Shown: positions 5,625 to 34,410 of the stretch, piece after piece | Layout: each line of letters starts with the position of its first letter | How positions within the stretch are numbered: the stretch's first letter is position 1 | Source: Pseudomonas oryzihabitans | Lineage (GTDB): Bacteria > Pseudomonadota > Gammaproteobacteria > Pseudomonadales > Pseudomonadaceae | Assembly (NCBI RefSeq): GCF_024652905.1 | Contig: NZ_CP102428.1 | Location: forward strand, 4,200,001 to 4,264,000 | Reading direction: 5' to 3' | Length of the DNA: 64,000 nucleotides | Notes under the pieces: generated by a model | What the model saw: only the letters and a program-made list of their open reading frames with translations | What the model was told of the DNA's origin: nothing | The model's database searches: none | Position numbers and translations under genes: made by a program

Positions 5625-5651
5625 GATCATTTGTTCCTACAGCGTTAATAT
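5623..5651 (+). promoter_or_regulatory. Predicted sigma70 promoter for the alpha operon
   Basis: TTGATC at 5623-5628 and TAATAT at 5646-5651 have a 17-base spacer. As at rpsH, the -35 box starts in the last bases of the terminator stem. Transcription from about 5658 would give a leader of about 52 bases before rpsM. In E. coli, S4 represses from the rpsM leader; I cannot confirm an S4 pseudoknot here. Confidence 0.5.
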
Positions 5652-5709
5652 CGCGCGCCCTTTTCTTGGCTTCCGGGGCGTCGGTAGCTGTCAATTGGAG
5701 TTTTTCTGA

Positions 5710-6066
5710 ATGGCCCGTATTGCAGGCGTCAACATTCCAGATAACAAGCATACTGTTATCTCGCTGACCTACATCTATGGTGTCGGTCGCACCACCTCTC
5801 AGAAGATCTGCGCGGCCACCGGCATCCAGCCGACCGCCAAGATCAAAGAACTGAGCGACGAGCAGGTCGATCAGCTGCGTAACGAGGTCGCCAAAATCCT
5901 CACCGAGGGTGACCTGCGCCGCGAAATCAACATGAACATCAAGCGCCTGATGGATCTGGGTTGCTACCGCGGTCTGCGTCACCGCCGTGGTCTGCCGGTC
6001 CGTGGTCAGCGCACCAAGACCAATGCCCGTACCCGTAAGGGCCCGCGCAAGCCGATCCGCAAGTAA
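5710..6066 (+). CDS. rpsM: 30S ribosomal protein S13
   Basis: A 118-residue S13 beginning [20 protein letters not shown], with the helix-two-turn-helix region and a basic tail ([20 protein letters not shown]). S13 sits in the 30S head, touches P-site tRNA and makes the inter-subunit bridge with L5. The ribosome site TTGGAG is at 5695-5700. It heads the alpha operon rpsM-rpsK-rpsD-rpoA-rplQ. Confidence 0.98.
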
Positions 6067-22842: not shown

Positions 22843-22903
22843 CGCCCCTGGCCCCCTGGCGGCGAACTGTGTTACAAAACCTGCGCCGCCTGCGGGTGGC
22901 GAG

Positions 22904-23053
22904 TTCTCAGGGCGGGGTGCAATTCCCCACCGGCGGTAACGCCCGATCAATCGGGACGAGCCCGCGAGCGCTTCCCGGTCCTCTGTGGCGGGGGAGGTCA
23001 GCAGACCCGGTTGGATCCCGGGGCCGACGGTCATAGTCCGGATGAGAGAGAAC
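22904..23053 (+). promoter_or_regulatory. FMN riboswitch (RFN element)
   Basis: All conserved RFN blocks are in order: TTCTCAGGGCGGGGTGCAAT at the 5' side, CCCCACCGGCGGTAA, GCCCGCGAGCGC, GGTCAGCAGACCCGGT, CCGGGGCCGACGGTCATAGT and the closing GGATGAGAGAGAAC. P1 forms between GTTCTC and GAGAAC. It binds FMN and turns off riboflavin genes. It lies 147 bases before ribE. The variable arm after GGCGGTAA is short. The space 22843-22903 shows nothing else. Confidence 0.96.
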
Positions 23054-23118
23054 GGGATAGCCTCGCCTGGCAGGGGTGCGAGCCCCTCGTCCGTCTGATT
23101 TCCCTTCTGTCCGTACGC

Positions 23119-32294: not shown

Positions 32295-32409
32295 CGGGAT
32301 TCTCGGCAGAGGCGATCGGGTCGCGGGAAGTGGGCAACAGGTTAGCCATTGTGCCACAGCCATCGGCGCCGCTTGACGCCATGCCCGGCCAGGCCCTAGG
32401 GTAGCGGTC

Positions 32410-32460
32410 ATGAAAACGCGCAGCCCTCAACGCCCCAGCATTATTACCGCCATTACCTGA
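32410..32460 (+). CDS. Predicted ilvA leader peptide
   Basis: ATG at 32410 opens a 16-codon frame, [16 protein letters not shown], ending in TGA just before an RNA structure region. Five of its last six codons are Ile (ATT, three times) and Thr (ACC, twice), the product and substrate families of the ilvA enzyme. AGGG at 32398-32401 is a weak ribosome site at good spacing. Position, codon content and downstream alternative pairings make a leader peptide very likely. No confident promoter was seen upstream. Confidence 0.8.
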
Positions 32461-32512
32461 TGGCGGGACAGCATTAGCTGCGCAACCAGACCCGCCCAAG
32501 AGGCGGGTTTGT
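32447..32512 (+). terminator. Ribosome-mediated transcription attenuator of ilvA
   Basis: Four segments can pair alternately. Segment 1 CCGCCAT (32447-32453) pairs with segment 2 ATGGCGG (32460-32466). Segment 2 GGCGGG (32462-32467) can instead pair with segment 3 CCCGCC (32491-32496), with a nested CAGC-ATTA-GCTG stem. Segment 3 ACCCGCC pairs with segment 4 GGCGGGT (32502-32508), followed by TTTGTACTTT, as terminator. Stalling at the Ile codons would mask segment 1 and allow the antiterminator. Confidence 0.8.
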
Positions 32513-32557
32513 ACTTTCTGACTCCTGGGCCCCGACGAAACACCCCAGGAGCCCGCC

Positions 32558-34099
32558 ATGACCGTCCAGGAACCCGCCACCGATCTCTTGCAGCGCTATG
32601 CCCGCAAGATCCTCGAAGCCCCCGTCTACGACGTGGCCATCGAGACGCCCCTGCAACCAGCCCGGGCGCTGTCCGAACGGCTGGGCTGCCAGGTGCTGCT
32701 CAAGCGCGAAGACCTGCAGCCGGTGTTCTCCTTCAAGATCCGCGGCGCCTATACCAAGCTGGCCAGTCTCTCGACCGAGGAAAAGGCTCGCGGCGTCATC
32801 GCCGCCAGCGCCGGTAACCATGCCCAGGGCCTGGCCCTGGCGGCCCGCGAACTGGGCGTGCGGGCGATCATCGTCATGCCGCGGACCACCCCGGAACTCA
32901 AGGTCATCGGCGTCCAGTCCCGTGGTGGCGAGGTGGTGTTGCATGGCGATGCCTTTCCCGAGGCCCTGGCCGAGGCCTTGCGCCTGGCCGAGGAGCAGGG
33001 CTACACCTTCGTCCCGCCCTATGACGATCCCGACGTCATCGCCGGCCAGGGCACCGTGGCCATGGAGATCCTGCGCCAGCAGCCGGGCCGGCTGGACGCC
33101 ATCTTCGTCCCCGTGGGCGGCGGTGGCCTGATCGCCGGTATCGCCGCCTATGTGAAATACCTGCGCCCCGAGATCCGGGTCATAGGCGTCGAGCCGGACG
33201 ACTCCAACTGCCTGCAGCAGGCCATGGCCGCCGGCGAGCGGGTGGTCTTGCCGCGCGTGGGGCTGTTCGCCGATGGCGTGGCCGTGGCCCAGATCGGCCA
33301 TCACACCTTCGAGGTCTGCCGCCGTTATGTGGACGAGGTGATCACCGTCAGCTCGGACGAGATCTGCGCGGCGATCAAGGACATCTACGACGACACCCGC
33401 TCCATCACCGAACCGGCTGGCGCCCTGGGCGTGGTGGGGATCAAGAAGTACGCCGAGCGCGCCGGCAGTGGCGGCCAGGTGCTGGTGGCCATCGATTCCG
33501 GCGCCAACATCAACTTCGACCGCCTGAGACACGTGGCCGAGCGCGCCGAATTAGGCGAGCAGCGCGAAGCCATCATCGCCGTGACCATCCCCGAGCGGCC
33601 GGGCAGCTTTCGGGCCTTCTGCGAGGCCCTGGGCCGGCGGCAGATCACCGAATTCAACTATCGCTACCACACCGGCCAGGAAGCCCATATCTTCGTCGGC
33701 GTCCAGACCCACCCCCAGCGCGATCCACGTGAGGCCTTGCTGCAGGGACTACGCGACCAGGGTTTTCCGGTGCTGGACCTGACCGACAACGAACTGGCCA
33801 AGTTGCATATCCGCCACACCGTGGGTGGCCATGCCATGCGGGTCGATCAAGAACAGGTGTTCCGCTTCGAATTCCCCGAGCGGCCTGGGGCGCTGTTCGA
33901 TTTCCTCGAGCGGTTAGGCGGCCGCTGGAACATCAGCATGTTCCATTATCGTAACCATGGCGCGGCGGACGGGCGGGTATTCGCGGCGCTGGAGGCCAGT
34001 CACGCCGAGCGGGGCGAGCTGTTGGCGACCCTGGATGCCATCGGCTATCGCTACTGGGACGAGACGGACAATCCGGCGTATCGGTTGTTTATCGGGTGA
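32558..34099 (+). CDS. ilvA: Biosynthetic threonine ammonia-lyase (threonine deaminase)
   Basis: A 513-residue PLP enzyme converting threonine to 2-oxobutanoate, the first step of isoleucine synthesis. The PLP lysine is Lys60 in SFKIRGAYTK; ASAGNHAQGLALAAREL and the glycine-rich PVGGGGLIAGIAAYVKY are present. Two ACT-like domains follow (EAIIAVTIPERPGSFRAF at about 339 and EQVFRFEFPERPGALFDF at about 432), the sites of isoleucine and valine allostery. GGAG precedes the ATG. Expression is probably set by the leader peptide attenuator. Confidence 0.95.
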   Translation: MTVQEPATDLLQRYARKILEAPVYDVAIETPLQPARALSERLGCQVLLKREDLQPVFSFKIRGAYTKLASLSTEEKARGVIAASAGNHAQGLALAARELGVRAIIVMPRTTPELKVIGVQSRGGEVVLHGDAFPEALAEALRLAEEQGYTFVPPYDDPDVIAGQGTVAMEILRQQPGRLDAIFVPVGGGGLIAGIAAYVKYLRPEIRVIGVEPDDSNCLQQAMAAGERVVLPRVGLFADGVAVAQIGHHTFEVCRRYVDEVITVSSDEICAAIKDIYDDTRSITEPAGALGVVGIKKYAERAGSGGQVLVAIDSGANINFDRLRHVAERAELGEQREAIIAVTIPERPGSFRAFCEALGRRQITEFNYRYHTGQEAHIFVGVQTHPQRDPREALLQGLRDQGFPVLDLTDNELAKLHIRHTVGGHAMRVDQEQVFRFEFPERPGALFDFLERLGGRWNISMFHYRNHGAADGRVFAALEASHAERGELLATLDAIGYRYWDETDNPAYRLFIG

Positions 34100-34110
34100 G
34101 GGTGATGGTG

Positions 34111-34176
34111 TTGGGCTTCGCTGCGCTCAGCGCCAACCTACGGGTAGGGTGGATCACGGTGCGGCCTTATCCACCG
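34111..34176 (+). repeat. 66-bp direct repeat, unit 1
   Basis: TTGGGCTTCGCTGCGCTCAG and onward through CCAACCTACGGGTAGGGTGG to CCTTATCCACCG. Differs from unit 2 (34202-34267) at only two positions by eye. The first 32 bases recur elsewhere in the window. It follows ilvA by 11 bases. The whole gap 34100-34410 is made of repeats and holds no gene. Confidence 0.85.
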
Positions 34177-34201
34177 TTGGAGTCACTGACAGTCCCGCCC
34201 G

Positions 34202-34267
34202 TTGGGCTTCGCTGCGCTCAGCGCCAACCTACGGGTAGGGTGGATTATGGTGCGGCCTTATCCACCG
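34202..34267 (+). repeat. 66-bp direct repeat, unit 2
   Basis: Second copy of the unit at 34111, same orientation, separated from it by 25 bases; it differs at the ATCACGG/ATTATGG position. The near identity points to recent duplication or gene conversion. Confidence 0.85.
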
Positions 34268-34314
34268 CTCGCGTCCGTGTACGTCAGTGGAAAACGCTGC
34301 GGGGTCCAACCGCG

Positions 34315-34347
34315 CCCTCTCCCTCTGGGAGAGGGCTGGGGTGAGGG
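34315..34347 (+). repeat. Hairpin repeat CCCTCTCCCTCTGGGAGAGGG
   Basis: CCCTCTCCC and GGGAGAGGG form a 9-bp stem with a CT loop, followed by CTGGGGTGAGGG. This motif, usually called a REP-type element, is widespread in intergenic DNA of pseudomonads and xanthomonads; it can also act as a terminator for ilvA. Confidence 0.75.
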
Positions 34348-34372
34348 TGGCCGGACGCCAGAAATCAAGCTG

Positions 34373-34404
34373 TTGGGCTTCGCTGTGCTCAGCGCCAACC
34401 TACG
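34373..34404 (+). repeat. Partial copy of the 66-bp repeat (first 32 bases)
   Basis: TTGGGCTTCGCTGTGCTCAG then CGCCAACCTACG matches the first 32 bases of units 1 and 2 with one change (TGTG for TGCG). It ends 6 bases before the stop of the AsmA-like gene. Confidence 0.8.
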
Positions 34405-34410
34405 AAAGCG

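What the first reader, a model, noticed from the sequence alone, without database searches (positions are those of the whole stretch)
32410..32512. Four-segment attenuator with Ile/Thr leader peptide ahead of ilvA
A 16-codon leader (ending SIITAIT) is followed by mutually exclusive stems 1:2, 2:3 and 3:4 with perfect complementarity, the last being a terminator 46 bases before ilvA. The stop codon is placed so that a completed leader masks segment 2. This is a full enteric-type attenuation device on a monocistronic ilvA; I do not recall it being described for Pseudomonas ilvA.
Basis: partly seen in the sequence, partly recalled or inferred. Interest (0 to 1): 0.75.

Follow-up and report, generated by a model that had tools for sequence, protein, structure and literature searches.

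The report
Isoleucine-sensing attenuator before threonine deaminase gene
A short stretch of RNA ahead of a Pseudomonas isoleucine-synthesis gene looks like a switch that lets the gene be read only when the cell runs short of isoleucine, and it is the same piece of RNA that a database lists as the small RNA P9.

Summary
Window 32410-32512 carries leader [16 protein letters not shown], stems 1:2, 2:3 and 3:4, and a terminator ending 46 nt before ilvA. The sequence is catalogued: 32437-32511 is Rfam RF00624, "Pseudomonas sRNA P9" (61.3 bits, gathering 43). My reading: P9 is the terminated leader of an isoleucine attenuator.

P9 matches occur in 139 of 298 Pseudomonadaceae genomes. Of 131 elements examined, 122 fit a four-segment pattern, each with an in-frame Ile leader. 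In P. aeruginosa PA7, P9 precedes a SnoaL-like gene and ilvA. 22 elements lie outside the family; in the 14 aligned, stem 1:2 is kept by compensatory changes.

(1) Promoter geometry suggests a leaderless leader: a -10 box ends 6-8 nt before ATG in 121 of 122. (2) The element also precedes SnoaL-like, P-loop kinase and other genes. (3) P9-linked threonine deaminase lacks its allosteric domain in 16 of 30 loci of one set, 0 of 20 of another.

The mechanism is inferred; I had no transcript or starvation data. A new member of a known kind.

The parts
32373..32378 (+). -35 element TTGACG
   Evidence: 5 of 6 match, spacer 18; at least 5 of 6 in 110 of 121 elements against 31 of 2420 shuffles
32397..32402 (+). 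-10 element TAGGGT, ending 7 nt before the leader ATG
   Evidence: TAnnnT ends 6-8 nt before ATG in 121 of 122 elements and occurs 5 times in all other upstream positions scanned
32410..32460 (+). leader [19 protein letters not shown], probably leaderless (start at or next to +1)
   Evidence: in-frame leader in the 122 elements that fit the pattern
32440..32445 (+). regulatory Ile codons ATT ATT directly before segment 1
   Evidence: Ile 122/122 and 113/122
32447..32454 (+). segment 1 CCGCCATT
   Evidence: fold; compensatory changes in 1:2
32459..32467 (+). segment 2 GATGGCGGG, pairs with 1 or with 3
32487..32496 (+). segment 3 CAGACCCGCC, pairs with 2 or with 4
32502..32511 (+). segment 4 GGCGGGTTTG; 3:4 is the intrinsic terminator
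   Evidence: terminator scan; 3:4 99.3% and 99.5% of cells paired
32437..32511 (+). match to Rfam RF00624 (P9 sRNA)
   Evidence: 61.3 bits, gathering 43, full length 1-74
32547..32551 (+). AGGAG, likely ribosome binding site of ilvA
   Evidence: sequence
32558..34099 (+). ilvA, biosynthetic threonine ammonia-lyase, 513 aa with two C-terminal regulatory stretches
   Evidence: TIGR01124 789.5 bits, cut-off 411.3; PALP and two Thr_dehydrat_C stretches

Best explanation
It is a ribosome-mediated transcription attenuator sensing charged tRNA-Ile. Transcription starts at or next to the A of the leader ATG, so the leader mRNA is leaderless (inferred from promoter geometry). When Ile is short, a ribosome stalls on ATT ATT (32440-32445) and covers segment 1. 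Segment 2 then pairs with 3, the 3:4 terminator cannot form, and ilvA is transcribed. When Ile is plentiful, the ribosome runs to the stop at 32458 and covers segment 2, so 3:4 forms and transcription ends near 32511. The short terminated RNA is what is catalogued as sRNA P9. Shown here: the anatomy, its conservation, covariation of the helices (strong for 1:2, weaker for 2:3 and 3:4), and the gene it precedes. Inferred: ribosome positions, the start site, Ile as the signal, and the regulation itself.
For: Leader and stems. P9 family match. Conserved in 139/298 genomes. ilvA lies in the fetched stretch for 111 of the 131 loci L001-L131, the window's own L001 included, and follows in 37 of 39 named contigs; the other two contigs' stretches end within 250 nt. 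Ile codons 122/122 and 113/122. Covariation over 25 diverse sequences: 1:2 95.4% of cells paired, 13 cells changed on both sides (0 of 500 shuffles as many); 2:3 90.5%, 1 such cell; 3:4 99.5%, 3 such cells. Alignment columns 29, 47, 87 and 97, which link all three helices, pair throughout in 24 of 25 rows: A-U-G-C 11, G-C-G-C 10, A-U-A-U 3, one misfit. Ile rather than Thr: kinase-linked leaders such as RIIIIP have Thr in the last 7 residues in only 3 of 14. IlvA makes the first committed intermediate of isoleucine (established pathway).
Against: No transcript or regulation data. The 2:3 helix is 6 bp in the window and weaker than 1:2 plus 3:4, as attenuators require but also as no regulation would predict. 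Direct covariation for 2:3 is weak: one doubly changed cell on each alignment (56 of 500 and 13 of 500 shuffles as high), and its pair 51-83 fails in 16 of 25 rows. Inside Pseudomonadaceae 3:4 has no doubly changed pair and 1:2 has two. The window's U-tract is poor. The main text of a P. aeruginosa 3'-end study does not name ilvA or a leader peptide (PMC8297930, term search and passages); its tables could not be read.
Confidence: 0.9

Rival explanations
1. P9 is a trans-acting small RNA that merely lies upstream of ilvA; the short ORF is incidental.
For: Rfam types it as a gene, not cis-regulatory. PMC2375449 says P9 was among the sRNAs detected by Livny et al. (passages); that study itself did not detect it.
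Against: In-frame Ile leader in the 122 elements that fit the pattern, a conserved leader start context, a 2:3 pairing incompatible with 3:4, and adjacency to Ile-entry enzymes of several kinds.
Confidence: 0.05
2. The attenuator reads threonine, the substrate of IlvA, or Ile and Thr equally.
For: Thr ACC follows the Ile pair in 119 of 122 Pseudomonadaceae leaders.
Against: That ACC overlaps segment 1 and may be held by pairing. It is replaced in L015 (Ile), L057 (Ser) and L123 (Ala). 11 of 14 kinase-linked leaders lack Thr in the last 7 residues.
Confidence: 0.06
3. A fixed or protein-controlled premature terminator; leader translation is irrelevant.
For: 3:4 is the best paired helix; direct covariation for 2:3 is weak; no expression data.
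Against: Does not explain the reading frame, the Ile codons, or the covariation of 1:2.
Confidence: 0.05

Closest known systems
Rfam RF00624, Pseudomonas sRNA P9
   Same: Same sequence element: window 61.3 bits, P. aeruginosa PA7 89.8 bits.
   Different: Rfam models it as an sRNA gene; its 74 positions start inside the leader ORF and omit the leader start and promoter. That Rfam gives its function as unknown is recalled.
Enteric ilvGMEDA, ilvBN and leu leader-peptide attenuators
   Same: Leader rich in codons of the pathway amino acids, terminator against antiterminator (E. coli leaders as described in PMC6123439, passages).
   Different: Here it precedes ilvA alone, SnoaL-ilvA or other genes; the codons ahead of segment 1 are Ile; the leader is apparently leaderless.
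Sinorhizobium meliloti trpL / rnTrpL
   Same: Attenuator whose RNA starts with the leader ATG (PMC7298713, passages); the terminated RNA is known as an sRNA.
   Different: Trp, not Ile; alphaproteobacterial; its RNA and peptide act in trans, which is untested for P9.
Pseudomonas aeruginosa armZ leader PA5471.1
   Same: Leader peptide and 3:4 terminator attenuation in Pseudomonas (PMC13041342, passages).
   Different: Responds to ribosome-targeting drugs and controls an efflux anti-repressor; I did not compare the sequences.

Membership tests
Ribosome-mediated amino-acid transcription attenuators | short leader ORF with codons for the regulated amino acid at segment 1 | tested here: met
Ribosome-mediated amino-acid transcription attenuators | mutually exclusive 1:2, 2:3, 3:4 pairings | tested here: met
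   all three pairings possible and kept; covariation strong for 1:2, weak for 2:3 alone
Ribosome-mediated amino-acid transcription attenuators | 3:4 is an intrinsic terminator before the first structural gene | tested here: met
   U-tract weak in the window
Ribosome-mediated amino-acid transcription attenuators | stop codon placed so a ribosome completing the leader masks segment 2 | tested here: met
   stop 32458-32460 at the start of segment 2; in 111 of 122 elements it lies at or after the end of segment 2; footprint arithmetic is recalled
Ribosome-mediated amino-acid transcription attenuators | controlled gene acts in the pathway of the sensed amino acid | tested here: met
   ilvA; not evident for the kinase-, SnoaL- and acetyltransferase-linked relatives
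Ribosome-mediated amino-acid transcription attenuators | Shine-Dalgarno site for the leader ORF | tested here: not met
   longest match to TAAGGAGGT in -20..-4 is under 4 nt in 107 of 122, 4-5 nt in 15. I do not count it as defining: S. meliloti trpL starts at its ATG too
Ribosome-mediated amino-acid transcription attenuators | derepression on starvation for the amino acid | not testable with these tools
   needs a reporter or RNA-seq
Rfam RF00624 P9 | covariance model score above gathering threshold | tested here: met
   61.3 against 43 bits
Leaderless attenuators (S. meliloti trpL type) | transcription starts at the leader ATG | tested here: inconclusive
   promoter geometry in 121 of 122 elements and, without a shuffled control, 12 of 14 distant ones; no start site was mapped
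T-box or riboswitch | match to a T-box or riboswitch covariance model | tested here: not met
   only P9 found at E<=1 in 32350-32570

The most novel reading that the evidence does not exclude
P9 is the Pseudomonas branch of a leaderless isoleucine-starvation switch found across Gammaproteobacteria. It has been placed in front of different genes (threonine deaminase, a citramalate-synthase-like gene, SnoaL-like proteins, P-loop kinases, an acetyltransferase). Where it drives threonine deaminase it can replace allosteric control, so enzymes under it have lost the Ile-binding domain more than once. The terminated RNA or its peptide may also act in trans, as in S. meliloti trpL.
Probability: 0.4. 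Interest if true: 0.78.

Novelty: new member of a known kind. Interest (0 to 1): 0.6.

Why it matters
It would give a function to a small RNA family listed since 2006. It would show how Pseudomonas runs two threonine deaminases, one attenuated and in one lineage without its feedback domain. It would link poorly understood genes (SnoaL-like, P-loop kinase) to isoleucine supply, and offer a natural test of leaderless translation coupled to transcription. The central claim is testable with one reporter.

Tried and rejected
R1 and R2 hits below 40 bits were first thought to widen the family; those I looked at are mostly bare terminators. By my leader criterion (II or ITI near the end, then a hairpin) 27 of 28 loci with at least 40 bits pass and 1 of 34 below does (the miss is L334, leader ...MIGTI...). 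R2 was built from 14 of the distant loci, so those match by construction; 8 elements of at least 40 bits outside the family were not in its training set, of which 7 pass (two of the 8 had weak R1 hits). The second R1/R2 hit in the window's own genome (C1:2376943) is such a bare terminator (sequence printed).

One search placed the distant loci wrongly (an offset error of mine); one search replaces it. A leader longer than the boxed ATG was considered for several loci and dropped because the -10 box sits at a fixed distance from the shorter start; this preference was built into. The distance ATG to Ile (30, 33 or 36 nt) being a multiple of three is not evidence, since I chose in-frame ATGs.

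I considered calling the L296 gene a feedback-free citramalate synthase and did not: it keeps about half of the LeuA allosteric domain, is below the CimA cut-off, and its start codon is uncertain.

Full report
WHAT IS THERE. The window sequence holds a 16-codon ORF at 32410-32460 ([16 protein letters not shown]), a hairpin 32447-32466 (1:2), a hairpin 32487-32511 (3:4, terminator) and, 46 nt on, ilvA (32558-34099). IlvA is 513 aa and passes TIGR01124, biosynthetic threonine ammonia-lyase, with 789.5 against 411.3 bits. It has a PALP domain and two regulatory C-terminal stretches. The RNA folds far better than shuffles (z -5.7).

IT IS RFAM P9. 32437-32511 matches RF00624, 'Pseudomonas sRNA P9', full length, 61.3 bits against a gathering score of 43. 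PMC2375449 (passages) says P9 is among the 17 P. aeruginosa sRNAs of Livny et al. 2006, and that its own screen discarded that region; the Livny paper was not held. A named copy, P. aeruginosa PA7 (L254), scores 89.8 bits. There P9 lies between a gene whose protein (110 residues searched) matches PDB 1xpn, 'hypothetical protein PA1324', and a SnoaL-like gene of 135 aa that overlaps the start of a 515-aa IlvA. I therefore place P9 between PA1324 and PA1325-PA1326 (ilvA2); the numbers PA1325 and PA1326 are inferred from order. One expression table lists PA1325 and PA1326 with similar values, 1.927 and 1.801 (PMC5150637, passage). PMC9239102 names PA0331 and PA1326 as the two IlvA paralogues (passage).

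CONSERVATION. P9 model: 139 of 298 Pseudomonadaceae genomes at E<=0.001, 129 over the cut-off, 8 of 19 genera, 0 of 14 control genomes. That call found 144 matches. One is the window; I fetched 130 (L002-L131). Not read: five of genus g8 that score like L112-L122 (G076, G092, G107, G114, G177), a second one in G204 (69.6 bits) and seven weak ones. Of the 130 plus the window, 122 of 131 fit a four-segment regex. The nine misses are L101 and L103, which have an Ile leader and ilvA but differ from the regex, and the weak hits L125-L131. All 122 have an in-frame leader, commonest form ...SIITAIPxLAG, 89 distinct peptides. Ile codons: first 122/122, second 113/122 (nine Met), third 121/122; ATT 357, ATC 39, ATA 9. 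ilvA was found in 111 of L001-L131; the 20 without it are L003 (stretch ends soon after P9), L112-L122, and L124-L131. In 39 named Pseudomonas contigs found by a pattern that itself fixes the core, all 39 leaders have the promoter box and ilvA follows in 37; the stretches of the other two end within 250 nt.

STRUCTURE. On 35 non-redundant cores (A1): 1:2 89.8% paired with two doubly changed pairs, 2:3 91.4% with one, 3:4 99.3% with none. With 14 distant relatives (A2, 25 sequences): 1:2 95.4% with 13 doubly changed cells (0 of 500 shuffles as high), 2:3 90.5% with one (56 of 500), 3:4 99.5% with three (1 of 500). Four of the seven 1:2 pairs hold non-pairing cells (8 of 175 cells) and two of the eight 2:3 pairs do (19 of 200). 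One position in each segment varies in concert: columns 29, 47, 87, 97 read A-U-G-C (11, with a U-G wobble in 2:3), G-C-G-C (10) or A-U-A-U (3); one row of 25 misfits. Since column 47 pairs with 29 in one fold and 87 in the other, this supports both folds, though three A-U-A-U rows are few and may be related.

LEADERLESS START. A Shine-Dalgarno match of 4-5 nt is seen in 15 of 122 and a shorter or no match in 107. Instead TAnnnT ends 6, 7 or 8 nt before the leader ATG (42, 59 and 20 of 122; L124 lacks it), with 5 such hexamers in all other upstream positions scanned. A -35 with 5-6 matches to TTGACA sits 16-19 nt further up in 110 of 121, against 31 of 2420 base-shuffled controls. The base before ATG is C in 96% of 120 distinct upstream sequences. 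Where several in-frame ATGs existed I preferred one with the box. In the window: TTGACG 32373-32378, 18 nt, TAGGGT 32397-32402, 7 nt, ATG. A similar geometry with looser -10 boxes is seen in 12 of 14 distant loci (best fit over several spacings, no shuffled control); L216 and L219 lack it. This predicts +1 at the ATG, as reported for S. meliloti trpL (PMC7298713, passages). It is not a mapped start.

WIDER FAMILY. At E<=0.001, R1 matched 31 of 244 genomes of the order and 20 of 369 of the class, R2 61 of 254 and 46 of 369, many of them bare terminators. At 40 bits or more with R2, 23 of 254 (17 outside the family) and 5 of 369 (4 outside) carry an element. Six of the 14 first distant loci also pass Rfam P9. 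The 22 elements outside the family stand before a P-loop kinase (14; on a 100-residue part of one, the nearest curated models are 'DNA topology modulation protein', far below cut-off), a SnoaL-like gene (3), a threonine ammonia-lyase of 341-359 aa (3), a citramalate/isopropylmalate-synthase-like gene (1) and an acetyltransferase-like gene (1, L334, named by eye); most kinase and SnoaL names rest on the start of the protein read by eye. All 22 leaders hold at least two Ile. The 14 kinase-linked leaders, for instance MNTNLTQKTARIIIIP, end before segment 2 like the window's, whereas 111 of 122 Pseudomonadaceae leaders end at or after the end of segment 2. Within Pseudomonas genus g8, 11 fetched loci (L112-L122) carry a changed 1:2 stem and leader IITTI[A/T]PMVG; an AAA_33-like kinase was read in three of them and a SnoaL-like gene in three, and none has ilvA in the fetched stretch.

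TWO DEAMINASES. The window genome has a second ilvA at C1:4396826, 97% identical, without P9, beside a gene I read as rpiA. Three congeners without P9 have one close IlvA each. In the tree, both copies of this genus group together (support 0.999), so one has been recently duplicated or converted. In 30 relatives (L002-L031) the P9-linked enzyme is closed at 335-343 aa in 16, right after the catalytic domain; it is open at 350 aa or more where the stretch ends in 12; L003 has no ilvA and L008 reads into unknown bases. Of the 39 named loci 20 were measured and all 20 are full length. Pfam finds PALP and no Thr_dehydrat_C in the three short ones tested and in the three distant deaminases. In 13 of 18 genomes re-searched, a short P9-linked copy accompanies a full-length one. 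The six short forms put in the tree are one clade (support 1.000), so within Pseudomonas this is probably one loss; the distant ones tested are nearest another IlvA model (two of three tested). My reading: attenuation by Ile can stand in for feedback by Ile. The window's own copy is full length, so here both controls would act, which this reading does not need.

HOW IT LIKELY WORKS. With the P-site at codon 11 a ribosome reaches about 32455, covering segment 1 and leaving segment 2 free; at the stop it reaches about 32470, covering segment 2 (a 15-nt reach from the P-site is recalled). The third Ile codon (32452) would already mask part of segment 2, so codons 11-12 are the likely sensors.

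KNOWN OR NOT. Paper searches listed no paper that, from its title or the passages I opened, describes an ilvA attenuator in Pseudomonas or a function of P9. I saw all rows of 7, 31, 33, 67 and 99, and only the first 20 of 209, 20 of 28 (14), 20 of 75 (18), 20 of 58 (30) and 10 of 100 (74). The library lacks most subscription journals, including the 2004 comparative survey of attenuators cited in PMC6123439, which might hold it. Term searches of main texts: PMC2965389 has no 'ilv'; PMC8297930 and PMC3460626 have no 'ilvA' or 'leader peptide'.

Noticed in passing
window 22899-23057 (+): FMN riboswitch RF00050, 103.1 bits.
   Followed up: no
window 5646-5742 (+): Alpha operon ribosome binding site RF00140, 48.1 bits.
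   Followed up: no
window about 34110-34410: Repeated GTTGGGCTTCGCTGCGCTCAGCGCCAACCTACGGGTAGGGTGGAT... units after ilvA, which remind me of Pseudomonas REP-type repeats (recalled); parts recur after the second ilvA copy (blastn).
   Followed up: no
own genome C1:4396826-4398340 (L144): Second, 97% identical ilvA without the attenuator; partial matches at contig ends suggest such copies break assemblies in G005, G022 and G075.
   Followed up: partly
L099, L106 against the window (same genus): A SnoaL-like gene sits between P9 and ilvA in these congeners but is absent in the window, so it was gained or lost within the genus.
   Followed up: partly
L125 (G044): P9-like element (39.5 bits) with a transposase-like gene shortly downstream, as if an insertion had cut it off from its gene.
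   Followed up: no
L334 (G582 C27): A second element in one genome, leader MTMNKLFSIAQAMIGTIQNERWVC, before an acetyltransferase-like gene.
   Followed up: partly
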